Of a stretch of 64,000 bases of DNA, positions 28,679 to 58,929 are shown piece after piece. The notes under the pieces were generated by a model. That model ran no database searches. It had not been told where the DNA came from and saw only the letters and a program-made list of their open reading frames with translations. Origin of the DNA: Bryoerythrophyllum caledonicum (taxonomy: Eukaryota; Streptophyta; Bryopsida; Pottiales; Pottiaceae); the NCBI GenBank assembly GCA_963971425.1, contig OZ020521.1, forward strand, positions 436,501-500,500. Direction: 5' to 3'. Made by a program: the position numbers and the translations under genes. The stretch's first letter is position 1. Every line of letters begins with the position of its first letter.

Positions 28679-28690
28679 TGCATACAGAAG
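28679..28690. repeat. Left target-site duplication of LINE copy B
   Basis: TGCATACAGAAG occurs here and again at 47718-47729, bracketing copy B exactly. Perfect identity over 12 bp indicates a recent target-primed insertion. Confidence 0.92.
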
Positions 28691-31600
28691 GGCACTTAGG
28701 AAGGGGGAGGAATGGCTGAGTGAGCTCCACAATTTCAGGTGAAGGGGAAGGATGGACTTAGACTCATTTCTAGCACTCTCAAGCAACAAGAGGTGGCTGG
28801 CCTTGTTGGGAGCTCTTGTTTGTTGCAGATCTGAGTCTACGGAGGTCGTGGGATTGCAGTACATGTGTTGGGTGATGCTCGTAATCTAGATCTGCAAACT
28901 ACCTGTGGAGAAACGTGGAACTCTGGTTTAGACTTGAATAGGTGAATTCTGCAAGCGAGCGACCTTGTGTTGGAATTCAGATCCAAACCAGTTAGACCAG
29001 TTTCGAAGCGGGATCGAGTCCAGATCTGGAATGGAATGATGAGCGGCTGCGGATCTCCTACAAGTCCATTCCTTACCCCGAACCTAACACTCACCTTTAC
29101 AAAATGGAGACGACGTTTAGCATCAACAACTGCAGCAAACACCATCAATATCAGGCTACCTCTTACACCCTTTTTTGCATTTACATCTCATTGCTATCAT
29201 TTCTCACTCATAGTCTGTCATACACACATAATATAGCTATCAGATCTGAAAAAGTTGTACTAGATCAATACACCTTAGATGCACACACCACAACACTCCA
29301 CGATACTACTTGCTGCTACGTCCTAACTTCAGTCTACACGAAGAATCCAAAATACATCTACAGCCTAGGTCGAACATCAGGATCAGGAACACAATCTAGC
29401 TACAATCTAGCTACCCTCTCCCGAATGCTCCGAAGAGACTCACTATCCTTAGAATCTAACCCAAACGTCGTAGATTCTCGGATCTGCAAAACCTCTCCCG
29501 AATGCACTGTCCAGGAGAAAGTTACACTCAGCAACAGAGAATGCACAAGGATGCGCGCGAAACAGCAACGGGAGTGGCAGAAGGAACTTGCCGACAACGC
29601 AACAACACAGAACAGATCAAGTACGGATCCCCCCTGTGAATCCTCTCCCAACTGCACAAATCAAGGTGAAGACACACGAGACAGGAGTAAGCGCGCGCAA
29701 CAACACGAAAGACAACAGAAGATACCTCTCGCCACAACAATGTCCAAATCAAGAGAAGACACTACGTCGACACCTCAAGTCTCTGATTGCAGCGAAGAAC
29801 CAGAGAAGCACGGTTCAGGGAGGAGGAGCTCCAGATCAACAAAAACAGCAACAATACCTCACCGAAAAGTTGTGGAAACAGCACAAGAACTCGCACTTCA
29901 CCCGAGCAGAAGAATCTCATACGTGAAAATCGACGTCGACAGGAGCCCTTTCCAAAGAGACTGCAATCAATGGAGCCTGCAATCGTGCAAGCTCAAAGAC
30001 CAAGCACGACCCGCCAACCACCTCAAGTACCATGACCGAAGACTGACGCCGAACCCTGCAACGACTCCAGCAACGGCAGCATCATCACCACCAAATTTAG
30101 TGCGCAATCGAAGGGTGAGTATCAGCCATCAGGAAGAGATCGTCCGGCCAGGAGAACAATCTACAACATCAAACCCTAAGCAGTTGCGCAGCCAGCCAAC
30201 AAACCCTCAGAAACCTGAAACCCTAGACGGCCAACATCACTACAAATACCAGGCTTGCAGGCGCTTCAAACCCTCTTCAGCTTGCACCATAACTGCTATG
30301 TGCGCTATCTTCTGTACCTCTAGTACATCACCTGCAGAGCCACTGACCAACGAGGTCGTGAACGGCAACACGACAAGGCGGTCCGAACGTCGGAGAGCGA
30401 ACACTTGCGATCCAGCAGGGGAAGGCGGAGTCTACGCAGTGGGCAGTAGAGAGCCAACGCAGCCTGATCGAGGTCCTGGTGGCGACCCCTTCCGTCGTCT
30501 TCGCCAGTGCCGCACCACGTCTACATCACCAGCTCAGCTCCGCTTCGTCGTCGCTGCGCGTCTCCCCGGCGAGCACACACACCACCTGCTCGTTTGTCAA
30601 CATGACCACCCCCACGGGCCGCGCCCACAAACTACGGTGATTATCTTCCTCTTCGTACCATTGCTAAAATGTTTTTCCTTCTTGCAGCCACTACATCCTG
30701 GCGTGCTGCTACTTCCAAACCGTTCTGAGTCTTACAGGAGCAGCCCACTCGTAGGGGTTATTACCCCTTGGAGACACCCAAACAAGGAAGGCCAGGAAAG
30801 ACTCGCGAGGAGCGGCTACAGGGAAAGCATCGTATCAAAGTCGGTTTGGCTGGCTCGTGGAGGAAAGTTCGAAGCGGCGTGCTGCCATCCCGGCTTCCAA
30901 CTGGAAGACCGCCCCTCGACGTGCTGGACGCCTGTGAGCAAGGCAAGCTCCAACCTCGCAAGCACCTCAGTAGAGCCCCAGCAGAGGCAAGGAGTCCGGG
31001 AGCACTCGAATTTGGAGAACTGCCGAACGGTGTGTAAACACCCCCTGTACCAGAGAAGAAAGCCCGAGCTAGTGTGCCCCTATCCGCAGAAGGGACTGTC
31101 CCCACCTCCTACGCCCCAACGCCCAAGTCAACCACTCCTTAATCTGACCTCATCAAACAGGCAGAGAGTATGCTCGCGTCAACAGGTAGGAAGTCTGCCA
31201 AGAGGCAGACAGAACCTCTGGATGACAATGCCGTCAGAATGGAGAGTAATCCCCCTGGAAGTACAGGCAAGAGAACGCTACAAGAAGCCAAGAAAGGAGG
31301 CCAAACCACACACAAGAAACCCACAAGGTTGGTGTTGCTTTGGTAGAAAATTCTTACTTTGTGAGGTTTGTGTAAACCATCATTGTATGTTTTATGTACT
31401 TGATATAGAATTGCACTATGTGGAAAGATACACCATCAAATTCATTGGTGTATCTACAAAGTGTCTCTTTGCAATATGTATTAGAAGTAGCAAACTATGT
31501 AATGATATTTGTTATGTGTCAAGATTAATGTCTAGGAACTCTTTTGATAGTGGTGATAGCATGCATTGTGCGATATGTGATAGTAATAAGGTTGTATGGT

Positions 31601-31900
31601 ATGTCAATTGCCTTGCCAATGTTTGTACACATGTTTGTTTAGTTAGCATTATGAAAGAGCATTGCGACAATAGCAATAGTTCTCTTCGTCAACTATGTTC
31701 AATCAGCAAGTACAGGGAAAGAGGTATCATATTTGATACATTCTTATACCTGAACATATTGCAACAAAAACCTTTCCTAGTCCATTCTCCTCTCCTACAC
31801 AGCCCACAACTTAAATTGTGGAATGGAAGGTTGAATGTATCTAATAGAAATGCCCCTATACTTAACACCTCTTTATATCTCTCCTTTATGTTTCGTAGAA
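28691..31900 (+). other. 5' region of LINE copy B (long open frame of doubtful coding value)
   Basis: A frame is open from ATG 29104 without a stop into ORF1. Its first 900 or so codons have a shifting, low-complexity composition and no recognisable domain. An alternative basic N terminus exists in another frame from an ATG near 31169 (MLASTGRKSAKRQTE). It resembles the Lys-rich start of ORF1 in copy C and runs to about 31325. The AT-rich segment from about 31325 to 31910 differs in composition from its surroundings and has no counterpart in copy C, so it may be an insertion or an intron-like segment. Confidence 0.45.
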
Positions 31901-33516
31901 TATACTCACCAGCTGAAGCGTCTTCTTGCTCCAACAAAGTTGATACGGATGACATGGACGTGACACCTACAAAACAATTACAATTGGAGAAGGAAGCATG
32001 CACATCCCTCGAGGTAATTTCGGTCAAACGTGCGAGACCCCCTTACTGGCTTGGCTTTCATGCTTTGAATGCTTTAGGACAACTTCGTGAGGGTCCTAGA
32101 GTCAAACATCTTAGTGTAAGTGAGATGAAGTTGGAAGGAATGAGTGATAAAGAGGCGCTTGAAGCATGTGAAGCGAATATGTCCTTCCCGTACGTTACAC
32201 AAGAGCAATGGCCCAACTCCAGAGAGGATGGGAAAAAGGGGAACCATCTGAATCTAACCCAACTACCATGTGATGTGGAAGTGGATGATTTTGGTTTTTC
32301 CCTTGATTACCAAGTAGCAATCTCTTTTGAAATTGGAGAGTGTATACTCTCGAAAGATATTGTGCTACAGTTGGTTAAAGAACGACTTGTGCATATGAAA
32401 ATAGCATTGGGGGAACAAATGGCACAACCAATTGCCATAATGTGCCTTCACAAGTCGGACCAATGGAGTGGTGTAGTTAAAATTCATCTAAAAACACCCG
32501 AAATAGATGCATGTAGTCTCCTTACAGGGACTCGTCCCTTCATCCTAAAATTGGATGAAACTCTCTTCGTCAGGGGTAAGGTATGCAAATCCTTCGACTC
32601 TATTGCAATCCAAAGACTCTTATCCGTCAGAATTAGTAGTCCCTCCCTAGAAGACAAAAAGTGGTTTGAGGTCCTCTTTGATATTGTCAATGAAGGGTTT
32701 AAAAGAGGAGTAGATCATGAAGTAACTACGGTGACAAAGAAGGATATAGCAGATTTTGCATGGGTGAAAGCACCAACACCGGATGAAGCTAACAAATTAA
32801 AAAACCAAAAGATTTATGCGGAGAGTGAGGTGTTTATGCCAGTGTTTGCTAAACGGGGAAAAATGATAGAGGATGAGAAAGCCAAGAAGAATGCTGTAGT
32901 TCTAATTGCTCAAAACTTGAACAAAACGAAGTCCACCCATGAGCTAGAGACTGCCATCAAAGGATTTATGGGGGAAGAAAATGTTGTAAGCATCTACTTT
33001 AGACTTGAGAATGATAAACATGTAGGGAGTTGCAATGTGGAGTGCAAAAATGCTGCGGTTTACAAGAAGTATTTAAACAAATGTGAGAAAATGCTTAATA
33101 AGTATGTGGAATTCATTGCGCACCCTCGTAGCATGGATGGAAAACTGAAACCAAGCCCGGAGGAGCTAACAAGGCTAGGGTTCTCGGATATCAATACTGC
33201 CATCGCCAACACAGTAGAAACCCTAAACATCACCACGGGAGAGACCTATAGTAAAAAGGACATTAATAATCTAATTGATGTCGCGATTGCAAGAAGCTCG
33301 AAAGCCACAATGGGAGAAATTCGGCAAGAAATGGATAACCTCAAATAAGTGATTGTTTCGGAGGCCAAGACTTATGTGGATTCCGTGCAAATGGAGCAAA
33401 TCAAAAACACGAGTGCACTCCGCGTAGAGATAAGACTTTTGCAGAATCAAATGAAGTCCTCCATGGCCATCATGGATCAGCTTTTACCGGAAGAATCCAT
33501 GGACCAGACAAACTAG
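29104..33516 (+). pseudogene. LINE ORF1, copy B (one stop near the end)
   Basis: The conserved part begins near 31940 with DMDVTPTKQLQLEKEA and WLGFHALNALGQLREG, and continues with LTQLPCDVE, LDYQVAISFE, RPFILKLDE and GKVCKSFDSIA, shared with copy C. The stretch AVVLIAQNLNKTKSTHELE, then ENVVSIYFRLENDKHVGSC and AAVYKKYLNK has the order of a beta-alpha-beta-beta-alpha RRM-like fold. The C terminus (KKDINNLIDVAIARSSK, IRQEMDNLK) is a likely coiled coil. A TAA at 33346-33348 ends the frame, but the same frame continues as coiled coil (EIRLLQNQMKSS) to a TAG at 33514-33516. The role is probably RNA binding and assembly of the retrotransposition particle. No family name is assigned. Confidence 0.65.
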
Positions 33517-33643: not shown

Positions 33644-33957
<314 letters not shown>

Positions 33958-34019
33958 AAACACAACTACAACACCCTAGACCCCTCTCACCAGTAACTAT
34001 AAACATTACCCATTGCAAA

Positions 34020-34064
34020 CTACTAATTATACTTTGCGGAGACATTGAAACCAACCCCGGCCCA
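34020..34064 (+). other. 2A-like (StopGo) motif, LINE copy B
   Basis: The codons read LLIILCGDIETNPGP and are followed directly by ATG 34065. The frame is open upstream into the AAC array, with no ATG found, so where translation begins is unclear. Many codons differ from copy A while the core motif stays the same, which argues for selection. Confidence 0.85.
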
Positions 34065-37000
34065 ATGCCAAATGTCTTCCACAACCACCCAAAAATACAC
34101 AAAAGATTATCAAAAATATATTTTATTCCGAACACTATAAAACTACACCCCGAATATCAACACCTAGCATCTTCCTTTGCACCACTCCTAAAAAGTAATC
34201 ACATACTTCACCAAAATTACTCCACCCTCTATCCCAACATTTCCCGCTACATACATCAAAAAAACAACAACCACCCACCCGCACATATCTTATTCGCCAT
34301 AATTACCACCCTTCACCCTTCAATAGACGAATGCAATAACATCACTAACCAAAATTCTACCAACGCAAACCCAACACATTGGACAAATATACTACTAAAC
34401 ACCTTATCCGCTCTAAATAATCCCCCCGAAAGACACATAGATACACTCCACCCATACACTAAATTCCTAGAAGAAAATCAACACCTTCTCGAACACAAAA
34501 CTTCTCTACACAATGACCTATACAACTTTATCCATAGCCAAACCATACCTCCTTCCACCACTGAACTACAACTAAAATTTCCCTACTTTCCACACAATCT
34601 CATCCTTGAAGCACTTAGATGCTATGAACCAATTAATGACTACACACACCCCACCCCGACACCCGCCTACATTCCCCCCTCGCTTTGTAACCATGACAAT
34701 ACAAACAATAGAAATACATATATAGTTACATGGAACGCCTCAACGTTAAACACTGCCTTACCATGCATCCACAATCTAACCGCCCACACCAACACACCAC
34801 CCGCCATAATTGCTATACAGGAAACTAAAATAACAGCTACAAAATCCACAAAATATATTCAAAAAACATTCCCAGACTATAAACTTATATTTAACAACAC
34901 TCACTCTCTCACACGTTGCATCCAACAACGAAGGCCATACACACCAGCAAGAGGAGGTCTACTCATGCTCGTACACCAATCACATGCTTTTCCCGGGAAT
35001 ATTACTAAAATCCCTACCCCGGCCAATATATCACCATATCTCCAGATGATTGAAATTACTAACCGACCCCTCCAACCATGGCTCATTCTCCACCTATACA
35101 TGCCCTCGCACATAGAAGACTCTAGGCTTATTCCGGAAATCCAAAATTCCATCACTTCACAAATAAATACACACCCTAATCATACAATAATACTGTGCGG
35201 AGACTTTAACCGAGATATCGCCCTTATTGGAAGACAAAACGGAGGGATTGTCACTCCTCCACTTGACATAGACTATCAATGGCAAAACTATACGAATAAC
35301 CTAGAATTACATTTAATTCCAACCGATACACAGTACTCCCGACAAGGCGGTCTTAATTACACTCACACTAGCCTAATTGATGGATTTTACATTAAAACAC
35401 CTAACCATACTCGATATACATCTATCACTAATACCTCAACCAACCTAAACTCGGATCACTTCCCAATACAACTTAATATACCTCACAACACCCTTATAAG
35501 TAGACCCCCTACTACCATCCAATCAAATGATATTAAAATACTAAACCCCATTCCAAAAGAAAACCTTGACAACTTTAATACAATATTCTTCGAAAAAAAT
35601 TCACTACAAATAGACTCCCTCACAGATACTCTTTCTAACCACCAACACCTCAGACATATCCAATGGCAAGAAGCCTGCACGACGCTTGACAAACTTATTA
35701 CCAAAATTTCTACTACACTAGAAATGACTTGTAAAGCGCCTCCAATACTACAACTCACACCTAGAACTTCAAAACAAGGGGGGTATCTCCCAAGAAAACT
35801 AGCCAAAAAGTGGAAACAACATCTTGCCGCATACCACACTATTCGCAAAACAATTTATATTGCCAAAACCAACCAAAATTGGCAAACCCATCCCATACTC
35901 TCCGAACTACAAAACCTCCATTATCCCCAAATCCCACAAGTACCACCACCCAACACCCCCCACGAAGACTGGCTAAAAGACATTGCAAACATTGCAAAAA
36001 TTGCCAATAGAGAAGCTCGAAAAATTACTACAAAATATGCAAGGGAATGTGTCAGAAAAGCTATTTCTAAATATCGACAATTATACGAAACTAGCCCAAA
36101 AAAGATTAATAGAAAAGTCTTCAAAGACAACACAAATCTACCACTAGACTGTATTTTAGACCAAAACAATAATATATTAACCAGCCCAGATGACATTGCA
36201 AACGAAGTATATCTTCAGCAATCCATAAACAATAGACCAACCATCCCCCCATGCCATCTTCAACCACAACATACACCAACATGCACATGCGGAGTTAGAC
36301 AATACCCGTGGCATGATTTAGACGGATTTACTATTGATAAAAGAGGCGAACCAACAACACCTCTCCACACATATTATAACAGAGACACATACAACATCTG
36401 TCTAAAAAATCTGGGAAACAATAAAGCCCCTGGCCCGGACCATATACCTAACTCAATTCTAAAAAACATGTCCCAAAGATTCCACGATCTCCTATCATTA
36501 TTTTTCCTTCATTGTTACAAACAAAAATCCATTCCCACATCTTGGAACACAAGTCTAACAATCTTATTATACAAAAAAGGCAACCCATCCGTACTATCTA
36601 ACCACCGACCTATTGCCTTAGCTAACACCATTTACAAATTATATACTAGTACACTCACATCAATACTATCGGCATACGGAGAAATACACCAAATATTACA
36701 CGAAAGCCAAGAAGGGTTCAGAGCCGAGAGAAGTACCAAACGGCAACTTCAAACCCTCATTGCCGCGCTTGAGGATGCAAAATTCACGAATAAAGACATT
36801 TACATACTCTACATTGACTTCAAAAATGCATTTGGCTCCATTGACCATCCTCGATTGTTAGCAGTTATGAGTGATCTTGGGTACCCGGAAGACGCAGTCA
36901 CACTGATTGGCAATATATACTCCCAATCTACCACTACATACGTCGGAGAATATTTTGGTAAAACACGCCCTATCCCCATCCAACGTGGTACCATCCAAGG

Positions 37001-40000
37001 CGATACATTGAGCCCGTACTTCTTTATTATCTTTCTAGAACCCCTATTGAGATGGCTTCAAAGAGGCAATAATGGATACACATTTGGAACCTCCAAAATT
37101 ACAATAAACTCGGCCGCATATGCCGACGATCTAGCAGCCATCTCCGGACGGCTAAAATCACTTCAAATTCAATTAGACAAAATAGACAAATTTTGTCTAT
37201 GGACCGGGATGGAACTTGGGGTCCAAAAATGTGCCGTAACCGGATGCCCAAACAAATCCAAAATAAATCCGACCGCCTTCAAAGCCCTTATCCAAGCTAC
37301 CAATATTCAATATTGCAACCAACTAATTCCGGTTCTCAACCAAAACCAACCCTACATATACCTGGGAATAAACCTAATCCCATCGTTAAAATGGAAAATT
37401 CAAATTCACGCTACTACTACCAAACTTATTAAACAATGCAAGGAACTTACACTATGTCCGGCCACATTGCAACAGAAAATAAAAATGATAGATACCGTCA
37501 TACGTCCGGGTATCTCATATAGCTTCTATGCGGTCCCCTATTCCATGCCCGCCATAAACAAACTTGACAAAAAAATCATAGCCATACAAAAGAAAGTATG
37601 TGGACTCCCCAATTGTACGCCCAATGTCATAACACAACTCCCCCACGAACTATTTGGATTAGAAGCCTTTTCCCTTAAAAATGCCTACCTACGTTGCATT
37701 GGAGAACAACTCCAGAATGCACTTAACGATAAAGGACGACTAGGAATAATTTACAGTGGACTCCTTCGGCACATCCTTGCCATTTATGGGGGAGCACAAT
37801 ACCTCCAAAGACTTAAAAAATCCGATTGTCTGAGATCTCCCATTACCCGCACACTTTTTCTACTCAAAACAGAGGGCAAAACATTTCTAAAAAGCACACT
37901 AGAAGATTTCCTACTAGGCCCCGCACCGCTCGAACAAAATTGGGCAAATGAAATACACAACCTCCCTAGACTTGACCGACAATTATCCGCCAGACTCCTA
38001 CAAAAACTCTTTTCTGTAAACATTACTGATCTAAAACAAATTACACTACCAAACGGAACACACCTTATGGACGACAAGAACTACAAAACACTCTATGGCA
38101 CCCCTCATAAATTAATAAAAAGTGCATTAAATATTGCCAAACAATTATTTTGTCACCCTCCATGTCTCCCTACATGCCCCAGCCATTGCATCGATCATGC
38201 CCCACTGTATACACTTAAAGACGCATACATCATCAATCACAATGATAACCACCCCAACATCAACCCCCCATTAATTCCTCCAAACCCGCCACACCCACGA
38301 TCATATGTTCCTCCGCCACATATATTAAAAAATCCTTCCATATATCCAATAAACAACATAACCGCGCACAAACATAGAAAATACATTGACTCCAACAACA
38401 TAAGCAAACAATACACGTCATACCTATGCCATTGGTTCCACAATAACAATACCTATGCCAAATGGCTCCCACAAAGAAATCTTTTTCCTTGGCACAACCC
38501 AAATACTTCCTTCCATAACACCGATATCCTCACACAATACTACCTTAGAACTCAAAATAATCATTACCTAAATATCATACAAATACACCACCCCCAAGCA
38601 CAACCTCGAGATAGAAGATTTGTTTCGCCTCCTCTTATTATCCCCCTCCTTAACATCTTTACAACCGAATGCAATCCAGAAACGGATATCCGAGTACAAA
38701 CCAATACAATCAAAATACAACAAGACAATGCCCACATATATGAAGATAATGGCAGACATCTAATAACCATACCACTAGCAAGACTTCAATGGTTGTGGAA
38801 CCAATATCACAACGCACTACAAACCCCCATTAACATTGAACCAACACCCCAAACATTTGAAACTGAAATTGTTTGGCTATACCAAAGGTATAACTACCAT
38901 ACACCCAAAAATGACCCCCTCAAAAATGCACACTACACATTACCCGATCCTATTTTAGACTACCTTATTACATCTCTGAATATCACACATTCATACTTCT
39001 CATCCCCCGTTACATGCTCCACAAAAATCTCAAAATTTTACTCTCCATTCGAACGAGATAAGATTTTTGGTTCTCTTGGAAAAGCTTTTGATTATAAGTG
39101 GAGTGGAATAGGCCTTGCACACCCACACAATGAAGAAGAAATACAACATGTAATACATTGGGCACGCCTAGCAGCAAAAAACGATCCCAACCACAACATC
39201 ACCATTATTATTACTCCCGACACTCATTGGTACCAAAACTCCAACCCACATTTAGGCCCATTCCCGGACTCCCACATCATCGCACTATTTGAAGCGGATT
39301 CTATGACTTATAAAGAACCGACTATACCACCTCAAATTCAAGCACCCCGTCTGGAACCAGCAACTCTACGTATCTTATGTATACACCACCAAATAAGGGA
39401 GATAGGTACTCTTGAAAACCTCACTCACCTCACTTTGCTAGCAAAAAATCTAGACATTAACAAGGTATACACCGCAATTGCCCCTCCCACACCTATCTCA
39501 ACCCGTGTAAACTGTAACAAAAAATGGTCTAAAACCCCCCACACAAACACATATGCACTACCAATTACCGAATTGAGCCCCCCACTCCCCAACCACCAAA
39601 TGAATACCGTCCTTAAATTTGACCCCAACTTTAGCTACTACACTGACGGCTCCTTCAAAAAACCAACCGAAATAAGCCCGGGACATTGGCACCGGGAAAA
39701 AGCCGGATATGGGATATACAACTCAACCAAACAAATTAAATTAAGCAAACGACTACATGGACTTCAAAATATTCTAAGAGCCGAAATGATGGCTATACAC
39801 AAAACCCTTAAGATAATCACCACTCAATACCCAAACGAACCAGCTCACATTTTTACAGACTGCATAAATGTCTTATACCTCCTTAATACACACATAAAAC
39901 ACCCCACTCTACACAACAGTCATCCGGACAAAACAACCCCATATTCATTAAAATGAGACAAATCGTGAGATTTGAGACTAAAAGCCTATTACTTCGGACA

Positions 40001-43000
40001 CAAATATCGTGAAAAGTTGTTGCAAACGAAGGCAGACATCATGCATCATACAAGAAACATCCCAAATCCAACAATAAACAACATGATCATTGCGACGCTC
40101 GAAAATTGCATTTCACAAGACATACTAATAATAGATCATCATAGAGAATATAAATCCATCCATAGTCAAAGAGGAGTGAGCACAATGGAGAATAATAACA
40201 CTAAAACTTTATTTTCATGACATCGTTCACCAACATAGGTAATCACAAGCAAATTTCTATTTATAGTAGTCTAGGATCTATACTATCGTCTCTACAACAA
40301 ATCAAGGAAGGACTCCTAAAGCATAGAAACTGTTCCTACTTAGAAGCTCCCCCCTCACTACAAGGAATGGTTGAACCACCTCCTCGTGTCTGGAGAAGCA
40401 AGGCCTCCTGCGCTTTCACTTTCGCATATCCAATCATAATTTCCTTCCTCCGAGAATAGGGTTTATAGTAATCATCCACTTCCGAATAATTCATGGATTT
40501 TCGCAGAGGTGAATGACGTGATTGATGGCACCAACCACTATCAGCCCCAGAACCACCACCTCCACTCAAGCACAATGAATTCCGACGAAACTGTGAAGAT
40601 GCGGATCTCAAAGATCTAGGCATTAAAACCAAAGATTCAGTATGCAATCCCGTTGAACGTAAGGGAGGACTACTAACTCCAACAATACCATCAGATCTTG
40701 AACTTGGACGTCGACTACGCTTAGCAGGGGTAGGAGAAGGCTGGACAGGAATAATTGAAGGCCGAATAATCAAATTGGAAGAGATAGGCTCAGACTCCTT
40801 CACCTCGTGAACATCAATTACACCATTAACATAGAGCTGCCGTTTAGGAGTGCCATCGCCAAGAGGCTCAATAGAAGCACACATCCGCTTGAGCGGCGAA
40901 GGAGATGCCATACAAGGAATTCCAGTCCTCCGCTCAGGAGGGCTATCAACAACACCATCATCGACTTTCTGTGTAGAAAAGTCCATGATAGCAGAGGCAA
41001 CATCGGTTGCAGTGCACATAAGAAACGGCTTTGAATAGTGAGATTGGAAGAAACCTCCAGGAAGAGACCCAGAACACTCAGAAAACGAGCCACAGTTCGA
41101 GGGCGGTTTACTAGGATCACTCCTACAAAGAGGAGGGATAGTAGCCTTCACAACCTACAAAAGACACACGAGGTAAAAGAAGCGATGAGTACGATATAAC
41201 AACATTCACAGCAACCCAACGCATGCTCGACCCGAGGATAAATTTGAAAGCCTAAAGAAAACAATTTACCTTGAAAGCCGTAAGGAAAATAGTTTAACTT
41301 GAATCCATAATAAATAAAATAAGTTCGACTAGAGGATAAACAATAATACTGAAAACAGTGATAAATCCTAGAACCGACCGAAAGATAAATAAAAAAACTT
41401 AGGAAACAAAAGACACAAGACAATGGCAATAAGTTACAAAAAAACTTGTTGTAGTTGAAAAATATATATATATTCAAAATGTACAATGGTGATTACAATG
41501 TCGATACTAAATATCTACTATATTACAAAATAGAAGTCTAAAACTATAAATCCGAAGAGGTATGACCGTCTGGAATATCATAGACAAAACCAACGTTCTT
41601 GTTTGAGAGCGTCATCCCATCTACAATATATCGCATGAAAGGGCTACTACGCGCCAACGGTTGAACTCCAATACGATTGTTATTAACAAAATCATGTAAT
41701 TGCCCAACGGGGCATTCGGAAACCAAACGTTGCAGCCAGGGTACAAGGTCCTGAGTAAGGAACTGGTCATCACAAGCCGCATGTCTCCACGGACGAAGAA
41801 AAATGGCATTTCCAATATGATTACAAACGCTCTTCTCCGGGCTATCGTCGATGAGAAGGGTGTTGTCTGAATCTAAGACCATCAACTCAACTTGGCGCCT
41901 AAACAAAGATGATGACAGGGTTTTCAAGAAGATCATCTTGTTCGAATTATTTGGGTCCATCAAGAACTTATTGGGCGAGATTTCAATTCTCTCACAACTC
42001 TCCTGACCAAGAACCAAAGCTGGAGAAGCCATGTCCGAAAAAAGATACTTCGCAATTTCAACTACGGTGGACTTCTTCATAGAGCTCCAGACGACAATAG
42101 AGTTCGTAATGTTTCTGATTTCCGCCAGAAACGCACGAACTCCTGGGCGAGTATATACAGCTTTGGGACCTATGTACGCAGGGACGGTGCAAGAATACGC
42201 TGCCCGACTCCCTGAGCCTCTAGACAACCCAGGGGCATGCTCTGTCTCGCACAGGATGCCATTAATATCCAGAACAATATTAAGCCACTTCGGTGGCCGC
42301 CGGTTGGGAACAACGGACAAACTCCTCCGCAAACAGTCCTGGGACAGGACGAACACACACTCAAGTCAATGGAAATTACCTGATGAAATGCACATTGAGC
42401 AATATGCAAAGGAAGCGTCACAGATTGCATCAATTCTCCCCCACATAGCGACTTCTGTAAATCATTCCCAATCCGAGGCTTCAATGCAAGAGGTCGATGA
42501 ACAATATCATCCATTCTCATCTGAGAAAACAATTGAAGAAAATTGAATTGTTAAACAATTCTATAAATTATAAACAAAGTCGTATTACAAATATGTACAC
42601 TTCGCCTAATGTACATTAAAACTCATATGGATCCGATTCCTGCAAGCCAACACACCAATATAAGACCTACTGAAGACTAGAAGTAGACATTAAAAAACTA
42701 CACGACAAATGCTGCTGGGACAAGAAAAAAACAGAGGAAAAAACTAGCCAACCTTGTCAGGTTCAGAGGTGCCCTGGTCGACACTTTCCGGAGACGGCTC
42801 GTAATCCACTCGCTCCTCCTCCACCGCACATAAAACATCCGCATCCACAGGATGATTGACAACGCGAGCTCCAACATCGCACTCTTTGGACTGACGAATA
42901 GTTACTGGGAATTGACGTGGCGAGGAAGCAGGAACAGAGGTGGCACCATGATCACGATGAATCATATTTTGGCAAGGCATTATGGTGTCATTGCACTTCG

Positions 43001-46000
43001 GTGGACTTTGCTGAGGACTAACCAGCATTCTATCCTCGGGTCGAGGATAATTCACATCCATTCCTTGGGACGAGGACGGAATGTCGTGAACACCAGGAGA
43101 ACGAGCCGGGGAAGAATGCTGACGAACGACAGAGTCTGGCACGTTCATCGTAATGGTCTGGCAGGGAGTCGACAGAGCAGCACCAGAATTATCTTCGATG
43201 CGAGGATGAACTGTGGACTCTGGCATAAGAGGCTGTGAAGGACCAGATAAAGCAGCACCTGTGGAGAGAGAGGCGGAGGACATCATCTGTGCCAGGTCGG
43301 CCTTCATCTGCAGATGAAGCTCAGCGCGGATACTGGCCGCAATCCGCTCCTTGTCCAAAGCAAACTCCAACTTTTGCTTCTCGAAGGCAGCCTCCATCTC
43401 AGCCTATTTTCGTGTCATACTCTACAGGAAATTGCTACTCTGCATGATATACTTGATGATGCTGCTGATCACAGTCCTAATAAGACTACTACACTTGGCA
43501 CTGGGGAGAAGGTGGTCTCCAAACACCTGCCTGCCTCTTTTCAATGGAGTGGAGTGTTGCCCAAAGTGAATGAGGTGAATTCAAGATTTGGCCTCAAACC
43601 AATATCTTTGTCTGGTCTGAGTCGAATTCGGAGCTCCGAATTTGAACAATACTCTACCAAGAAGCCTGGTGACAACTTTGCTCGCTGCGGAAGATGCGAC
43701 CAACTTAAGCAACTAAAGAAGGCTTGTACAAGGGGGTCTTCCGCATACAAAATGTGGGAAGTCACGCTGCAGTTACACCAGGCCTCTCAACAGACTCATC
43801 GAATTTTATATTATGGGAACCGGAAGAACTCGGAAGAAAAACCGAATGAGGTTGTGTGCATCATCCATGATAAAATGGATCATAGCAAAACCGCATCTCC
43901 TCATTTTTCTCACAAGAATAAAGCGACGGAGTCCTTCATGAAATTGCCTGTGGCTGTAACTGGAATGATTGCGCATGGACATGGAGATGTTCGTTATGCC
44001 CATTATAGTCTTGATATCTTCCCCACCGACTCGAACCACACTGTTGGATCGATTGCGAAGTTACTTCGGGACTTAGAGAGTCCACCGGCGTATTCTTCTC
44101 GTGAATTATTTACCGGAGGAAGAGCTTCTCCTCTCTCTCAGGCTGTGCTTGCGGATGCTAACGTGTGTCTTGGATCCCTTGCTGCTTCACCAGTTGAGCC
44201 TGTTGCTGCAAAACAGTTACCACCAATTCTCCAGATGCAGTTGGATAATGCCACAGGGGACAATAAAAATAGATTTGTGTTTGCTTTCTTTTCCCTCGTC
44301 GTCCATATGGGTATTTTCCGTGAAGTGTATGTCAACTTCTTACTTGTTGGTCATACTCACGAGGATATTGATGCAATGTTTGGGAGATGGAGTTCCAAAC
44401 TAAAGTCAAATAGCTATCCAACGATTCCACTCTTGATGAAATCATTCATGGATGCTGAGAAAATGCCAGTTATTCCACACCTCATTGAAGAGGTGCCCGA
44501 TTTCAAGGGCTTTTTAGAAGGATATTTGTGCATTGGCAAAGAGGCCCTTACAGGTCACACAAAGGGCCAACAATTCAAGTTCTACAAGGGCTCAGATGGA
44601 TTGCCAAAGATGCAGTACAAAATTCTTTGTACAGATAGGGATTGGTTGCCCGAGGAGGAGGGAGGAATCCAGCTGTGGAAAGTGACGGAAGATGGTATGC
44701 CAATTTTGCCTCGTGGTCAGCCGCTTCCTCTCATTCCGCGACGTCATGAGAATTATGATGAGGTTTTGAAGGGTCTCTCTGGGTTTCTAAGTCTTTGGGA
44801 ATCAATGGCTAACGAGGATCTCTCGGGTGAATATAGGAGGAAGAACGAGCATATTATGTATTATTGGAGAGGTGTTAAGGATGCCCTCGAAGGGCCTTTG
44901 GAAGAATCGTCTCTTCTACGAGAGGGATTCTGGCCTCTATCTAGATATGCTCCATCTATGGTGGATGAATATGAGATTGATGGGTCGTTGCGGGAGGAGT
45001 ATGCAGAGGACCCTCCATTCATTGGACAACGTCGTCATTGTCCTCCTCCATCGTTTCGGATTGGTAGAGATGTGTACGAGGGCTATATACTTGCGGTGCG
45101 TTCTGCTGATGGGGATTTGCGCCCATTTTGGATTGCCTTAGCGTTGACTAATCCACATCCGGATCGTGAACATTCTCATGAGATTAAAGTGCAATACTTC
45201 AAACCTGCATCCCAACGTCATGTGGACTTGGAAACGTACCAAGGGTGGGATTCTAATCATGGGAATAATTGGGTTGAAGAGACTGAATCTGAACCAATCT
45301 GGGTGTATATAGATTGTATTTTAACGGCTTGGAAGCCTAGGTTGCGTGGAAACACAAGCTCCTCTAGGTTAAGAATTCCAAAATCACAAGTGGACATAAT
45401 CAAGGCATCTGTAGCTGAATTATAGATTCCATCGGAATTTGTGGTTTTTGGGGACTAGAGTTATTTTACCAATATAAAATAGGGGGGTGCATGTTCTTTT
45501 TTGATTTTTTGTTCTTTCGTGCTGGATATTCTATTAAGTATGTAGTGAATTTGTATCTGTAGAATGGATTTGTACTCTTTAAATGTGCGCATAGCATATT
45601 TGTAGATAGAATTAGATTAGTATTTGTAGTTACATGTAGTGATGTATTGTGTTGCTTTCAATATTATACAACAGAGGCGGGAATTGTGTTTCATCATTGA
45701 TGTATAATGGCGGTTCACATAGTGAGTGTCATAAATTGTACATTTATCTTTGATGCATCGATACTTTCTATTGATAGCAATTATTGAATGGATTGCTACA
45801 ATACATGCTAACTTTTCAACGCTAGGTATTTCAACGACCTTATTGTTTGGAAATAGTAGAATCTCTTGAAATTGGTAATTAATTCTGTTTCAAATGAAAA
45901 GATATGCATTCTAGGTGGAATTTAAATGAGTGTATATGTGTATTTTAGTCCAATTTTAAACCCTACTTAGAGGGGTTATCACATTTATTGCTGCTTCTAT

Positions 46001-47484
46001 TTTCCACAGTAATTTTATTTTCGCAATGATTTTTTTTGGATGTATTAGTTTTTCTTAGGTAATATCCTCCATATCTTGGTACATTTTTTATAATCTATTA
46101 CCTTTACACATACAATTGAATATGATATTCAATTTCATACAAGATGAATTCAACAATCCATGATACAACTAGCTTATCTAGCATTTTCAATGGAGATTAA
46201 GTCTCAATTTAATACATAGTCTCAAATTAATGAAATTATAAATTGACTAAAAAAAGACACCATGATAAATTGAGACTCCGAAATGTCTCATTTTAATGAA
46301 TATGGTGTTAAACTATCCTCACATCGATGGTTGAAATGCTCCAAAATCGCACACAAATCACTACACTCCACAAAGTCCGAGCTCATGCTAACATTGACGG
46401 TAACGAACAAGCTGACAAACTAGCCAAGGAAGGAAGAGAAAAAACCCACAAAAATGCCGAACACTCATACGAACACGCCCACGCCACCCCATATTACTTT
46501 CATAGATATGAATGGCCCTCTATGGGTGAAACTCCTGATAAAGGCCCCATAAGATTTTTGGATAAATACCTCAAAAAACATGACATTATTAATAACCTGG
46601 AAAAACTCACAGAAAAATTCCCTAATATTGATAAATGGACCGGCAACCCAAACATTCACAACACATTGTCCAACAATTTTTGGAAAAACCCCATAATCAC
46701 GGACCCACAAATCACATGCCTAATCAAATTCCGCACCGGACAATACATGGGAAATGCCCGCAAACAACTCTTCTTTGGAATAGAAAGATTCCCTACAATA
46801 ACATGCCCAATCTGCAATACCACGGACCCAGACACATGGCTACATGTCTTACTCAAGTGCCAAAACCCCCATATACACTCACTCATTGTCAAAAGACACA
46901 ACAAAGCCGTATGGGCTATCCGTAAACTACTTGTATCATCAAACAAATCCCGATGCTTCATTCTCATGAATGCCGGTACCTTTAATGACAATCCACAAGA
47001 AAATACGGTTCCTCCTTGGCTTTTACCATGCACATGCTATACTCAAAGATGTTACTGTAATGCAAGATTCAAACCAGACCTATTATGCGTCAGAGGACTA
47101 TCATACAAAGACCCTCCACCAAACCACATTGACCCTAGTCTCACTATTCAATTCATTGAATTCACATATTGCAATGATAGATTCTCACCGGACACTATTG
47201 CAAACAAAACAAATAAATACCAACCACTACTTAACGATATACAAACACTAGGATGGAAAGTAGACCCCCTCATTGTCATCACCGCGGGTGCTAGAGCCAC
47301 CACCTTCATTCCCTCAATTACAACCCTTGAAGAAACATTTAAAATCCCCATCACTTCAATCAAAACCACATTTTCAAATATCAACACTATTGCAATTCAA
47401 CACGCTATGTCGATACTTCTGCATAAACGAAAACTTGAAAAAACCAACCAACCCCTTCCCGACGCCCTGTACCCCCCTCCATAG
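34065..47484 (+). CDS. LINE ORF2, copy B: APE, RT, RNase H and restriction-like endonuclease (split by transposon)
   Basis: The coding parts are 34065-39934 and 46314-47484. Together they give 7041 nt, 2346 residues, all open. From the ATG: an N-terminal region of unknown role (1-215); apurinic-type endonuclease with W223-N224, E253 in QETK, GDFN at 379-382 and SDH at 463-465; reverse transcriptase with NHRPIAL near 845 and YADD at 1019-1022; RNase H with D1861, E1907, D1932 and the NEQADK Asp at 1991. The C terminus has a CCHC block (C2121, C2124), an RHNKAVW motif, KPD at 2210-2212, E2239 and KY at 2258-2259. This is the layout of restriction-like endonucleases in R2-type LINEs. The protein nicks target DNA and primes cDNA synthesis. 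The dual-endonuclease reading of the C terminus is from motif order only. Confidence 0.9.
39935..39959 (+). repeat. Left terminal inverted repeat of the DNA transposon
   Basis: The core CATATTCATTAAAATGAGAC is perfectly repeated in inverse at the right end. GAGATTTGAGACT follows within 20 bp and is a likely subterminal binding motif. Confidence 0.92.
40336..41160 (-). CDS. Ser/Pro-rich disordered open frame, probable 3' exon
   Basis: The frame of about 270 codons contains many SP motifs, basic patches such as KRSRRPSSRSD, and ends EALLLQTRGGGSTIPC. A plausible splice acceptor (TTTTGTAG) lies just upstream at about 41144, so the frame may be the last exon of the minus-strand gene that includes the FCP1-like domain. 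No domain is recognised; it looks like a disordered, nuclear-type protein. The stop lies 376 bp from the left inverted repeat. It may be a captured host sequence or an accessory gene proper to the transposon. Confidence 0.4.
41544..42532 (-). CDS. FCP1/NIF-like HAD-fold protein with altered catalytic motif, inside the transposon
   Basis: The main frame (42356-41544) contains WLNIVLDINGILCETEH, YTRPGVRAFLAEI, IVVWSSMKK, IFLKTLSS and NTLLIDDSPEKS...NAIFLRPW. In order these match motifs I to IV of FCP1/SCP (NLI-interacting-factor-like) phosphatases, which dephosphorylate the C-terminal domain of RNA polymerase II. Motif I is normally DxDGT/V; here it reads D-I-N-G-I, keeping the nucleophile Asp but losing the second Asp. 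Activity is therefore doubtful. Upstream, 42532-42379 encodes MRMDDIVHRPLALKPRIG and ends at a GT, and an AG precedes DCLRRSLS, but the implied intron is only 42 nt. The exon structure is uncertain. Confidence 0.6.
42744..43397 (-). CDS. Coiled-coil plus disordered frame, probable upstream exon of the FCP1-like gene
   Basis: The frame begins MEAAFEKQKLEFALDKERIA, a charged heptad-like helix, then becomes Ser/Pro/Gln-rich. Near its end EPDK is followed by a GT that could splice to the AG before 42532 (intron about 220 nt) without a phase change. Its start overlaps, on the other strand, the first codons of the open frame that contains the transposase. I do not recognise a domain. Confidence 0.4.
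   Translation of the reverse strand: MEAAFEKQKLEFALDKERIAASIRAELHLQMKADLAQMMSSASLSTGAALSGPSQPLMPESTVHPRIEDNSGAALSTPCQTITMNVPDSVVRQHSSPARSPGVHDIPSSSQGMDVNYPRPEDRMLVSPQQSPPKCNDTIMPCQNMIHRDHGATSVPASSPRQFPVTIRQSKECDVGARVVNHPVDADVLCAVEEERVDYEPSPESVDQGTSEPDKVG
43430..45425 (+). CDS. Transposase-like protein, DUF7869-type
   Basis: The frame is open from 43314, but the part before about 43430 is antisense to the coiled-coil frame. A splice acceptor (ACTCTACAG at about 43430) suggests that this is a 3' exon whose 5' exon I cannot place. It encodes a CxxC pair (FARCGRCDQL), then HDKMDHSKT, LQMQLDNATGDNKNRFVFAF and FLLVGHTHEDIDAMFGRWS. The three acidic positions (D in DHSK, D in LDN, E/D in HEDID) resemble a DDE/D catalytic triad. 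I associate these motifs with DUF7869-containing proteins in repetitive loci of plants, algae and cnidarians; that link is from memory and untested. The protein ends at TAG 45423-45425, about 660 residues, with no break. It is the best candidate for the enzyme that moves this element. Confidence 0.7.
45426..46284. other. Non-coding right arm of the DNA transposon
   Basis: AT-rich DNA without open frames, between the transposase stop and the right inverted repeat. It should hold the transposase polyadenylation region and subterminal binding sites. Confidence 0.6.
46285..46309 (-). repeat. Right terminal inverted repeat of the DNA transposon
   Basis: This is the inverse of the left repeat with one mismatch in the fourth base. 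The 110 bp inside it hold several GTCTCA/TGAGACT motifs (for example AGTCTCAAATTAAT and TTGAGACTCC). Confidence 0.92.
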
Positions 47485-47717
47485 ACCACATTTGCACTTC
47501 ACCGTACACGCGACCCTTCTTTTAGAGACTTTTGGGATCTTTGGTCCTTTGCTCTTGGATACTTGTTACTGGATACATAGTGTCTATCCTCGAAAGGGGG
47601 AAGTAGTTCCATACTACTAACCCATGTTCGGTGGACATGGACTTAGTAGTGGAATGAACGGACATTTTATTCACGCCGGCCTCCTTACGGGGACCGGCGT
47701 TCTTCTTCTTCTTCTTC
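47485..47717 (+). other. LINE copy B 3' UTR with hairpin and (TTC)n tail
   Basis: The order is the same as in copy A: ATAGTGTCTATCCTCGAAAG, GGGGGAAGTAGTTCC, TTTATTCACGCCGG, hairpin at 47674-47699 (CGCCGG...CCGGCG) and (TTC)n. The hairpin loop differs from copy A while the stem is kept, which indicates that the structure matters. Confidence 0.88.
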
Positions 47718-47729
47718 TGCATACAGAAG
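47718..47729. repeat. Right target-site duplication of LINE copy B
   Basis: TGCATACAGAAG matches 28679-28690 exactly. LINE copy C resumes immediately to the right with its A/C-rich linker. Confidence 0.92.
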
Positions 47730-48261: not shown

Positions 48262-51200
48262 ATGTCTAAAAAAACCAAAATAAAAAACCAAAAAAATATA
48301 TATGTGTATATTCCACATACATACAAACCAATAAACTTACAACATACCAATAGAAACATTCACCACACACTCCTACTCATACTAGGAGGAGATATTAAAA
48401 CAAACCCCGGACCTATCCCAAACATTCTAAAACATCACTCCGCAATACATAAGAAAAATGCCGAAACATATTTCATCCCTAACACCATCAAACTACAATC
48501 AGAATACCAACACATTGTTAACACCTTTTCACCTCTACTAAAAACCACACACACACACACTACATCACGCCTACAACAACACATACCCACACATAGCCCA
48601 ATACATCCACCAGCAATGCACACATCTTATACGCCATAGTAACCACTATCTACCCATCCATAGAAGACTGTAACTATCTCCTAGCTCTGCATAACTAAGA
48701 TATTACCCAATGGACTAACATCCTTCTAAACACTCTAGCAAATGTCCACAACCCGCCTGAAAGACACATTAACACCTCACACCCTTATACAACATTCCTA
48801 GGGAAAAACCAAAATATAATATTTCACAAAAAATCAATACACAAAAAAATATATGACTTCATACATAGTAAAAACCCACCCCCTAATAACGTCACAATAA
48901 AACAAAAATTCCCATATCTTCCGAATAAGCTAATCAACAAAACATTAAAATGCTTTGACCTTATGCCAGAATATACACACCCACCACCTCCACCTCCTTA
49001 CCACCCTCCACAAAACCAAAATCAAAACATAAACAACAAAAACACAAGTATGATTACATGGAACGCCTCATCCCTCAATACCGCCCTCCCTAGCATACAA
49101 AATCTTACTACTCATACAAACATATCACCAGCTCTCATAGTCATACAAGAAACTAAAATCTCCACCACAAAATCAACAAAATACATACAAAAAATATTTC
49201 CTAACTACAAACTTATTCTTAGCAATACACATGCACTAACACAATGCATTCAACAACGCAGGCCTTACACACCACGACGTGGTCGCCTTCTTACACTAGT
49301 ACATATTAAATATGCTTTCCTGGGTAACATCATAAAAATCCCTACACATCCACACACATATCCTCCTACCTACAAACATAAAGGTTGTTAACCAACCACT
49401 ATAACCATGGCTAATCTTTCATATTTACATACCATCTCACTCCAAAGACATTAGATTCCAAAGGGACATACAAAATACAATTACCTCCCAAATCAACAGG
49501 AATCCTAAACCACACATACATACTATACGGGGACTTTAATAGAGACGTAGCATTAATCAGTTGACAAAACGGAAACTGCACCACCCCCCACAAACAAAAG
49601 ACTTTTAATGGCGCAGCTTTACAAATAATCTAAACTTCAAATACATATAGACAAACACTCAATACACTAGACAAGGGATTACAACTATAGTGACCGGAGC
49701 CTAATTGATGGATTCTACATTCATACACCCAACCATACACAAAATTCTTTGAAGAGAATTCCACACAAATTGACTCCTTGGTTCACACTCTTAAAAACAA
49801 GGCCCAACTCTCCCAATCACAATGGCAAGAAGCATGTCATATCCTTGATCTACTCATCAACATCTACACATCTCAAAAAAACAGAAAAAACACTTAGCCA
49901 TATTCTACACTATAAGAAAAATCATCCGAATTGTAAAAGATAATCCCCAATGGCAAAATCACCCCATCTATAACAAAATACTCAATAACCAACACACCCA
50001 AATCCCAAGACCCCTTCCATTTATCAAATGATATATGGATAAACGATATTGCATTAATCACAAAAAATGCAAACACACAAGACCGAAAAATAACCACAAA
50101 TTATGCCAAGAAAAACATAAAAAGGCATATAAAATATAGGCAACTGTACGAAACCAGTCCCAAGAATACTAAAAGAAAAGTCTTTAAAAGCACTGAATCT
50201 CCACGACTAGAATGTATCACAGACCAATACAACAACATTCTAACTCACCCACCAGAATACAACAACATTCCAACTAACGCATCAAACATTGCAAATGAAA
50301 TATATAACCAACAAACAAAAAACAACCGGCCCACCGTACCTACATGCAACTATTTACTAGACCACCTACCTACATGTACATGTGTGGTAAGACAATATCC
50401 ATGGCATGACCTTGACGGCTTCACTATAGATAAATGTGGTGAACTACAAATCCCACTACACACCTACTTCAACCAAGCCACATATGAGGCATGCCTCAAA
50501 AATCTAGGAAATAATAAAGCCCCAAGATTTGACTGCATTCCAAAGTCAATACAAAAACATATGCCCCCAAGATTCCACAAACTTCTCTTCCTATTTTTTT
50601 TCTTAGTGTTACAAACAAAAACAAATCTCCGCCTCATGGAAAACGAATTCTACAATACTACTACACAAAAAAGGGAATCCCTTAATGCTTCCAAACTATA
50701 GACCAATTGCCTTAGCCAACACTATCTATAAACTATTAACAAGCACATTTACATTCACATTTTCTTCATATGGAGAAAAACATTAAATCATACACAACAG
50801 CCAAGAAGGCTTTCGTGCGGAAAGAAGTACCCATAGACAACTCCAAACCATAATATCCGCACTCAAAGACGCACGATTTACAAACCAAGACATGTATATT
50901 TTATACATAAATTTCAAAAATGCATTTGGATCTATTGACAACACACGAATATTAGCAATAATGTCTGACCTTGGATACCCACTGGCGCAGTTGAACTAGT
51001 TGGAAACATCTACTCTCACTCGTCCACGTCATACGTTGGAGAATATTTTGGAATAACTCGTCCCATCCCAATACAACGCGGAACCATTCAAGGTGATACC
51101 TTAAGCCCATACATATTCATTATTTTCCTAGAACCACTACTAAGATGGATGCAAAGGGGGAATAATGGCTTCACCTTTGGAACATCACAAGTTACCATAA

Positions 51201-51376
51201 ATTTGACCACTTACGCCGACGACCTTGCCGCTATAGCCCGTAAATCTAAATCACTACAAATCCAACTTAATAAAATAAAAAGATTTTGGGATTGGTCCGG
51301 AATGGATGTTGGCACCCAAAAATGAGGAGCCAGGGGATATCCAAACAAATCCAAAACCAACCCCATTGCATTAAAG
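48262..51376 (+). pseudogene. LINE ORF2 remnant, copy C, with 2A-like motif
   Basis: An ATG at 48262 opens a 36-codon leader (MSKKTKIKNQ...) followed by LLLILGGDIKTNPGP at 48370-48414 and the conserved PNILKHHSAIHKK. This is the only copy in which a start codon upstream of the 2A-like motif is clearly in frame. The endonuclease (WNASSLN near 49060, QETK near 49150) and reverse transcriptase (QYPWHDLDGF near 50395, NNKAP near 50510, QRGTIQGDTLSPY-like near 51075, TYADD near 51210) are recognisable, but the frame is broken by numerous shifts and stops. The ORF ends abruptly at 51376. RNase H and the C-terminal endonuclease are absent. Confidence 0.85.
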
Positions 51377-58870: not shown

Positions 58871-58929
58871 TAGAAGTCGACCAAGCCCTACTTACAAGGA
58901 ATCAGTAGAAAAATATCGAATCCAATCCA

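What the first reader, a model, noticed from the sequence alone, without database searches (positions are those of the whole stretch)
34065..47484. One LINE protein with two different endonucleases
ORF2 of copy B has an apurinic-type endonuclease at residues 220-470 and, after RT and RNase H, a C-terminal block with CCHC, RHN, KPD (2210-2212), E2239 and KY (2258-2259). That block follows the motif order of the restriction-like endonuclease of R2-type LINEs. Established knowledge: dual-endonuclease LINEs (Dualen/RandI) were described in Chlamydomonas. Finding this plan with RNase H in a plant-like genome, in three copies, is unusual. The protein from copy A shows all the same motifs.
Basis: partly seen in the sequence, partly recalled or inferred. 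Interest (0 to 1): 0.88.

Follow-up and report, generated by a model that had tools for sequence, protein, structure and literature searches.

The report
Plant jumping gene with two DNA cutters
A land-plant genome carries many recent copies of a very long LINE jumping gene whose one large protein appears to hold two unrelated DNA-cutting enzymes, a layout reported so far mainly from green algae, plus extra modules not expected in such elements.

Summary
ORF2 of copy B (from 34065) reads N-terminal domain, APE, RT, PCIF1-like domain, RNase H, CCHC knuckle, R2-type RLE block. A 6.4-kb DNA transposon (39935-46309) splits it, but two relatives read in full have one open 2345-aa ORF2 in which Pfam finds APE, RT, PCIF1 and RNase H above cut-off. 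The C-terminus has most R2-type RLE features in order: CCHC, RHN, K2210-P-D, E2239, K2255-x2-K2258-Y2259; GxW is missing. Shuffles: 0 of 300,000 match. CCHC+RLE has the lowest dN/dS of the domains (0.052; APE 0.112). The PD-(D/E)XK fold is unproven: AlphaFold with two rows failed (pLDDT 39.6) and fold search was off. An RT tree with Dualen was impossible; the RT scores higher with three R2 chains than with L1, but R2Bm scores lower. New here: a land-plant host (WRKY and NAC gene sets), where a 2022 review names only L1 and RTE LINEs; a PCIF1-like domain; a 2A-like peptide before ORF2; a structured 3'UTR with TTC tail; 11-12-bp target duplications; 12.7-kb length; different ORF1s on similar ORF2s. 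Verdict: Dualen/RandI-type LINE, new variant of a known kind.

The parts
28679..28690 (+). target-site duplication, 5' copy (12 bp)
   Evidence: identical 12-mer after the 3' tail at 47718
28691..28706 (+). 16 extra bases between the duplication and the shared 5' end of the element
   Evidence: not shared with L039, which has 14 other bases here
28996..33348 (+). ORF1 of copy B (stop to stop); its stop lies 168 nt before the place of the L039 ORF1 stop
   Evidence: open frame 1450 aa; in-frame stops at 33346 and 33514; 98% identical to L039 over the last 445 aa; 100 shuffles of the matching L039 region reach at most 217 aa
33645..33973 (+). AAC-type microsatellite between ORF1 and ORF2
34038..34064 (+). 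2A-like peptide GDIETNPGP directly before ORF2
   Evidence: also in copy A at 982 and in L039, L040, L042
34065..39934 (+). ORF2 of copy B, first piece: N-terminal domain, APE, RT, PCIF1-like, start of RNase H
34719..35468 (+). apurinic-type endonuclease, ORF2 residues 219-468
   Evidence: PF14529 E 1.9e-07, 31.4 bits over cut-off 27.4; WNAS, QET, GDFN, SDH
36576..37373 (+). reverse transcriptase
   Evidence: PF00078 E 5.9e-29
38832..39221 (+). PCIF1-like domain between RT and RNase H
   Evidence: PF12237 E 1.4e-10, 41.5 bits over cut-off 31.1; 12 of 12 aligned copies match, 9 of them picked by that match
39633..39934 (+). RNase H, first part
   Evidence: in L039 PF00075 E 1.9e-12 at residues 1857-1998
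39935..46309 (.). DNA transposon inserted in copy B; not part of the LINE
   Evidence: inverted ends AAC[CA]CCATATTCATTAAAATGAGACA, duplication AAAC; holds a DUF7869 ORF and a NIF-phosphatase ORF
46312..47484 (+). ORF2 of copy B, second piece: end of RNase H, CCHC, RLE, stop
   Evidence: PF00075 tail, E 0.0002, 22 bits, below cut-off 25.8 for this piece alone; 99% identical to L039
46804..46860 (+). CCHC knuckle CX2CX9HX4C
   Evidence: C2121, C2124, H2134, C2139
46894..47433 (+). R2-type restriction-like endonuclease block (RHN, KPD 47071-47079, E 47158-47160, KX2KY 47206-47220)
47572..47702 (+). conserved structured 3'UTR
   Evidence: 39 pairs, 97.4% of cells paired, 29 double-change cells against 12.7 in shuffles
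47703..47717 (+). TTC-repeat 3' tail
47718..47729 (+). target-site duplication, 3' copy
982..8029 (+). copy A: 2A at 982-1008 and ORF2 from 1009 (stops at 5833 and 6100, frame change near 6512-6522); RNase H and RLE at 6494-8029
48415..51376 (+). copy C: decayed APE and RT, cut off at residue 1073; no RLE

Best explanation
This is a two-ORF, about 12.7-kb non-LTR retrotransposon of the Dualen/RandI type, multiplied recently in a land plant. Shown from sequence: ORF2 carries APE, RT, a PCIF1-like domain, RNase H and a C-terminal CCHC-RLE block; the copies end in a conserved structured 3'UTR and a TTC tail; three full-length insertions are flanked by 11-12-bp duplications, and the flanks read are unrelated to each other. 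Inferred: the protein binds the 3'UTR, one endonuclease nicks the target, RT primes on the nick at the TTC tail (target-primed reverse transcription), RNase H removes the RNA, and the other endonuclease or the same one cuts the second strand 11-12 bases away. By analogy with R2, where knuckle and RLE sit at the melted site, the RLE is the better candidate for the first nick. The 2A-like motif would release ORF2 protein from whatever is translated upstream in its frame. The PCIF1-like domain lacks the NPPF motif and so is more likely a binding than a methylating module.
For: Pfam domains in two intact ORF2s; motif positions; KX2KY and RH as described for LINE RLEs (PMC5678591 and PMC10499050 passages); shuffle test 0 of 300,000; dN/dS between L039 and L040: CCHC+RLE 0.052, RNase H 0.056, RT 0.066, APE 0.112, PCIF1 0.181; duplications in B, L039 and L040; 3'UTR structure; 29 different flanks at 29 loci after the tail; RT scores highest with R2 chains in the PDB.
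Against: The RLE profile has no significant match in the PDB (best E 0.73, a phage tail sheath protein). Pfam gives nothing over cut-off for 12 of 12 rows: only DUF3501 in 3 (best E 0.024) and L_protein_N in 1 (E 0.014, 15.8 bits, cut-off 27). The AlphaFold model is too poor to read. No GxW motif follows the fourth strand. D2212 and E2239 are 27 apart against 13 in R2Bm; the knuckle is one residue longer than the published range. No cysteine protease was found in ORF1 or ORF2, though Dualen is recalled to have one. R2Bm scores below L1 with the RT. No duplication was found for A or L041, and the L042 test was void.
Confidence: 0.85

Rival explanations
1. An ordinary plant L1 with APE and RNase H whose C-terminus is only the CCHC knuckle that APE LINEs share with RLE LINEs; the RLE resemblance is chance.
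For: APE LINEs also end in a CCHC knuckle (PMC5678591 passage); plant L1 carry RNase H (PMC4640811 passage); no PDB or Pfam match to the RLE over cut-off; R2Bm scores below L1 with the RT.
Against: Three R2 chains score 102-117 bits and L1 70.5; the tail is TTC, not poly(A); the RLE motif string is absent from 300,000 shuffles; the CCHC+RLE stretch of 265 residues has the lowest dN/dS of the domains.
Confidence: 0.07
2. A real RLE-fold domain that no longer cuts, kept as a binding platform as recalled for Prp8, with the APE doing all nicking.
For: Prp8 keeps an RLE fold next to an RT-like core (PMC5678591 passages; that it does not cut is recalled); the D-E spacing is unusual and GxW is missing.
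Against: The residues named as catalytic in R2 (D, D or E, first K of KX2KY) are present: D and E in 12 of 12 rows and K2255 in 11 of 12.
Confidence: 0.2
3. A composite: an APE-RT LINE and an RLE LINE fused by chance in the assembly or in one copy.
For: Copy B is interrupted and copy A is frame-broken, so neither window copy shows one ORF.
Against: 38 of 106 scored copies, on many contigs, have open frames of 2400 codons or more around the RLE match; the two read in full hold all domains.
Confidence: 0.01

Closest known systems
Dualen/RandI LINEs of Chlamydomonas and relatives
   Same: APE and RLE in one element (PMC4640811 and PMC3636483 passages) and RNase H (PMC4640811 passage); SINEs paired with RandI have short-repeat 3' tails, (ATT)n or (CTTT)n (PMC3747384 passage)
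   Different: land-plant host; PCIF1-like domain; 2A-like motif before ORF2; TTC tail; no cysteine protease detected (its presence in Dualen is recalled from the 2005 abstract, paper not held). Whether Dualen has PCIF1-like or 2A parts was not tested
R2 and other RLE LINEs
   Same: CCHC knuckle then RH, KPD, D/E, KX2KY; three R2 chains are the best PDB matches of the RT
   Different: also has APE and RNase H, no fixed target seen, D-E spacing 27 against 13, no GxW
Plant L1 LINEs
   Same: two ORFs, APE, RNase H, land-plant host
   Different: RLE block, structured 3'UTR with TTC tail; RT scores lower with L1 than with three R2 chains
PCIF1 (cap m6Am methyltransferase, PF12237)
   Same: domain over Pfam cut-off; PCIF1 chains are the only PDB hits up to E 1 (E 0.34 and 0.6, not significant alone)
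   Different: sits inside a LINE protein; AHPHN where PCIF1 has NPPF

Membership tests
Dualen/RandI group | APE domain upstream of RT | tested here: met
   PF14529 over cut-off and catalytic motifs
Dualen/RandI group | RLE downstream of RT | tested here: inconclusive
   motif order met; fold not settled
Dualen/RandI group | RNase H | tested here: met
   PF00075 E 1.9e-12 in L039, D-E-D-H-D residues
Dualen/RandI group | cysteine protease (recalled from the 2005 abstract) | tested here: not met
   no Pfam protease in the ORF1 stretches scanned (copy B 28996-33345; first 1187 codons of L040's ORF1) or in ORF2; absence by Pfam is weak evidence
Dualen/RandI group | RT groups with Dualen between R2-type and later clades | not testable with these tools
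   no Dualen RT sequence held; only R2 and L1 scores
R2-type RLE | CCHC knuckle CX2-3CX7-8HX4C | tested here: inconclusive
   CX2CX9HX4C, one residue longer
R2-type RLE | RH before the first helix of the fold | tested here: met
   R2151-H2152, invariant in 12 rows; the helix itself not shown
R2-type RLE | PD and D/E catalytic residues | tested here: met
   K2210-P-D2212 and E2239, 12 of 12 rows; spacing 27 against 13 in R2Bm
R2-type RLE | catalytic K as first K of KX2KY | tested here: met
   K2255-x2-K2258-Y2259; K2255 in 11 of 12 rows
R2-type RLE | GxW just after the fourth strand | tested here: not met
   the last W is 2271, before the presumed fourth strand
Plant L1 | poly(A) tail | tested here: not met
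   TTC tail in the copies read
Plant L1 | RT within L1 | tested here: inconclusive
   three R2 chains score above L1, R2Bm below it; no tree

The most novel reading that the evidence does not exclude
A land-plant branch of dual-endonuclease LINEs that has built a PCIF1-derived, no longer catalytic cap- or polymerase-tail-binding module into its replicase, uses 2A to part its proteins, and swaps whole ORF1 modules at a microsatellite, with the two endonucleases each cutting one strand at non-specific sites.
Probability: 0.25. Interest if true: 0.78.

Novelty: new variant of a known kind. Interest (0 to 1): 0.58.

Why it matters
The position of Dualen is read as showing that LINEs exchanged a restriction-like endonuclease for an apurinic one (PMC4640811 passage). 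Here the plan is found in a land plant as a young, many-copy family, with both endonucleases under selection. It gives a system in which the question of which enzyme nicks which strand can be asked on one protein. The PCIF1-like module, the 2A-like motif and the structured 3'UTR are further testable parts.

Tried and rejected
RLE fold: AlphaFold on the two window copies gave pLDDT 39.6 and I draw nothing from its strands and helices. PDB profile search found nothing significant for the RLE, and Pfam nothing over cut-off. One weak row, L_protein_N in L049 (E 0.014), is of a domain that I recall to be a PD-(D/E)XK nuclease; at 1 of 12 rows and below cut-off I do not count it. A full-length ORF2 query was tried so that HMMER might print an RLE stretch under the R2 hits; it printed only the RT. 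Relatives in viral contigs: none confirmed with the RLE or RT alignment. Frameshift signal: no X-XXY-YYZ heptamer (Y = A or T) in the 230-nt (L039) and 110-nt (L040) stretches scanned at the ORF1 end, so how ORF2 is reached is open. Rfam: 0 matches in the window at gathering scores. Considered and rejected: assembly chimera and plain plant L1. RT tree: dropped for want of Dualen, RTE and I sequences.
Full report
What the window holds. Stop-to-stop frames and repeats were listed first. The window lies in a 437-Mb genome of 894 contigs. Copy B of the LINE runs from 28707 to 47717. Its ORF2 starts at 34065 right after a 2A-like GDIETNPGP, and is open to 39956, just beyond an insertion point at 39934/39935. 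It resumes at 46310 and stops at 47484. The 6375 bp between are a DNA transposon with inverted ends and a 4-bp duplication. Copy B's ORF1 has a stop 168 nt before the place of the L039 stop. Copy A (2A at 982, ORF2 from 1009 to 8029) has stops at 5833 and 6100 and a frame change near 6512-6522. Copy C (48415-51376) keeps only APE and RT in several frames and ends at residue 1073.

Number and youth of copies. A search of the own genome with the last 390 aa scored 106 of 9865 first-look candidates. All 106 are at least 93% identical to copy B, and 38 of the 106 lie in open frames of 2400 codons or more (recounted). The rest of the candidates were not scored. With PF12237, 150 of 2614 candidates were scored and all 150 passed the cut-off; 33 of the 150 share one score (50.6 bits) and one frame length (3087) (counted by reading the table). 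L042, one of these, belongs to the subfamily of copy A (87.7% DNA identity) and carries a second, decayed 2A-like stretch, GGDINTRPN, 98 codons before the intact one. Of the four long loci read, L039, L040 and L042 have an open ORF2; in L041 a stop leaves 2093 codons open.

Domains. In L039 and L040, ORF2 is 2345 aa and Pfam finds four domains above cut-off in each: Exo_endo_phos_2 (E 8.4e-07 and 7.8e-07), RVT_1 (7.6e-30 and 2.7e-28), PCIF1_WW (1.5e-10 and 3e-08) and RNase_H (1.9e-12 and 1.1e-12). In L042, read as a 3086-aa frame, only RVT_1 and PCIF1_WW passed E 0.01. In copy A's first frame the two APE families stayed below cut-off (23.7 and 23.6 bits). Catalytic residues of APE, RT and RNase H are present; which residues are catalytic is established knowledge, recalled. 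The RNase H has the histidine form of the fourth residue.

The RLE block. Reference features are from passages of PMC5678591 and PMC10499050: CCHC knuckle CX2-3CX7-8HX4C, RH at the first helix, PD and D/E, catalytic K as the first K of KX2KY in the second helix, and GxW after the fourth strand; in R2Bm D996, D1009 and K1026. Here: CX2CX9HX4C at 2121-2139, R2151-H2152, K2210-P-D2212, E2239, K2255-x2-K2258-Y2259. D to E is 27 residues (13 in R2Bm) and E to K is 16 (17 in R2Bm). No GxW follows. In 12 aligned rows (copy B, copy A and 10 of the fetched loci) D2212 and E2239 are invariant and K2255 is kept in 11. These rows are 79-99% identical to the first, so invariance alone means little. The motif pattern, whose spacings I set after seeing the sequence, was matched by 0 of 300,000 shuffles of the domain, and by 2 of 300,000 when the CCHC was left out.

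Selection. Nei-Gojobori dN/dS between L039 and L040 (dS 0.28-0.65): CCHC+RLE 0.052, RNase H 0.056, RT 0.066, spacer after RNase H 0.070, linker before RT 0.102, APE 0.112, after RT 0.121, N-terminal domain 0.128, the two stretches around the PCIF1 domain 0.159 and 0.160, PCIF1-like 0.181. The differences among the lowest are small. Pairs with L042 are saturated or nearly so (dS 1.35 or more, or not computable) and were not used for ratios. Both endonucleases are thus kept.

RT affinity. Against the PDB, L039 ORF2 scored 117, 102.5 and 102 bits with three R2 chains (9nl2, 9nl3, 9dou), 70.5 with 8c8j (the same as LINE-1 chain 9k6g in the aligned part), and 61.4 and 57.3 with 8gh6 and 8ibw, recalled to be R2Bm. 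A four-row RT profile gave the same order. This suits an intermediate RT but is not a tree.

PCIF1-like domain. All 12 of 12 members of an alignment match PF12237; 9 of the 12 had been picked because of that match, so the count is not independent. A profile of them had only two PDB hits up to E 1, both PCIF1 (E 0.34 and 0.6), not significant alone. In the alignment the NPPF of PCIF1 meets AHPHN. That NPPF is catalytic is recalled.

Ends and insertion. Full-length copies with 12-bp duplications are B (TGCATACAGAAG) and L039 (TAGATCACTCGC); L040 has 11 bp, TTGTAAGAGTT, of which the first two letters could belong to the tail. B and L039 have 16 and 14 unrelated extra bases at the 5' junction. No duplication was found for A or L041; the script mis-parsed L042, so that test is void. 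Thus 3 of 6 tried. After the TTC tail, one search printed 31 flanks of 32 loci tried (L011 was not parsed). L021 was mis-parsed and is left out, and L010 and L039 are the same place, leaving 29 loci with 29 different flanks. No fixed target is seen.

3'UTR. In 41 aligned sequences (40 distinct) a 39-pair structure holds in 97.4% of cells. Double changes occur in 8 pairs and 29 cells, against 4.4 pairs and 12.7 cells in shuffles (6 of 500 and 0 of 500 shuffles reach them). Slid versions pair 35-47% of cells. The structure was derived from this same alignment, which favours it, and the copies are related.

ORF1. L039 and L040 have ORF1 frames of 1523 and 1596 codons; 100 shuffles each of the regions reach at most 217 and 224. 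Only the last 490 or so residues are alike (46.7%); nothing else was alike at E 1e-3, while ORF2 is 90% identical. The DNA match between L039 and L040 begins only within the microsatellite. An exchange of ORF1 modules at the microsatellite is the simplest reading; it rests on these two copies. In L039 the ORF2 frame has no methionine codon before the 2A, so ribosomes would have to enter it from ORF1 or without AUG. No standard slippery site was seen. That the 2A works was not tested.

Host. 49 WRKY matches and 31 NAC matches, counted exon by exon, which I read as some 26 and 17 genes. Sets of this size point to a land plant (established knowledge, recalled). The species was not identified.

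Comparison with print. A search for Dualen found 8 papers, of which I opened passages of 6; one for RandI found 8, of which I saw passages of 2. None of these passages reports them from land plants. PMC4438587 lists Dualen/RandI under green algae, PMC12747079 reports them in cryptophytes, and PMC9033089 says plant LINEs belong to L1 and RTE. PCIF1 with non-LTR found one paper, on human LINE-1 m6A; wider searches showed none whose listing describes such a domain in a LINE (listings, plus passages of PMC9033089 and PMC5890265). No paper on 2A in LINEs was opened (listing). Repbase and closed papers were not searched, so prior entries may exist. Kojima and Fujiwara 2005 is not held; its content is cited from passages of other papers or recalled.

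Verdict. The two-endonuclease ORF2 is real at the level of sequence. The RLE fold and the clade are still to be proven. As a Dualen-type LINE it is a known kind; host, PCIF1-like module, 2A-like motif and ORF1 exchange make it a new variant.

Noticed in passing
39935-46309: DNA transposon inside copy B with inverted ends alike over 26 bp but for one base, 4-bp duplication AAAC, a DUF7869 ORF (43251-45425 +) and a NIF-phosphatase ORF (41544-42365 -). The 4-bp duplication recalls Sola1, not tested.
   Followed up: partly
L042 (G000:C12:478000-487999), 2A sites at L042:2342 and 2636: Two 2A-like stretches in tandem in the copy A subfamily, the first decayed (GGDINTRPN), the second intact.
   Followed up: no
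L039 and L040 5' parts; window 28996-33645: ORF1 modules about 47% alike over the C-terminal third and unlike before it, joined to ORF2s that are 90% identical, with the change at the AAC microsatellite.
   Followed up: partly
27624-27778 (+) and 14466-14599 (-): Tail-only copies: the conserved 3'UTR and TTC tail with no ORF2 match beside them. They may be short 5'-truncated copies or SINE-like riders. The first lies between two pieces of another ORF1 remnant (26698-27138 and 27798-28055).
   Followed up: no
51377-52641: 193-bp unit repeated about 6 times; copy C breaks off exactly where the array starts.
   Followed up: no
18131-18333 (-): GTT/GTCGTG microsatellite, reverse complement of the LINE's AAC stretch (89-95% complementary); no LINE ORF2 match was found beside it.
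   Followed up: no
57019-62646: Gypsy-type LTR retrotransposon reading frames (gag, RT, RNase H, integrase; protease only below cut-off).
   Followed up: no
28691-28706 and the same place in L039: 16 and 14 extra, unrelated bases between target duplication and element 5' end, as if added without template at second-strand joining.
   Followed up: no
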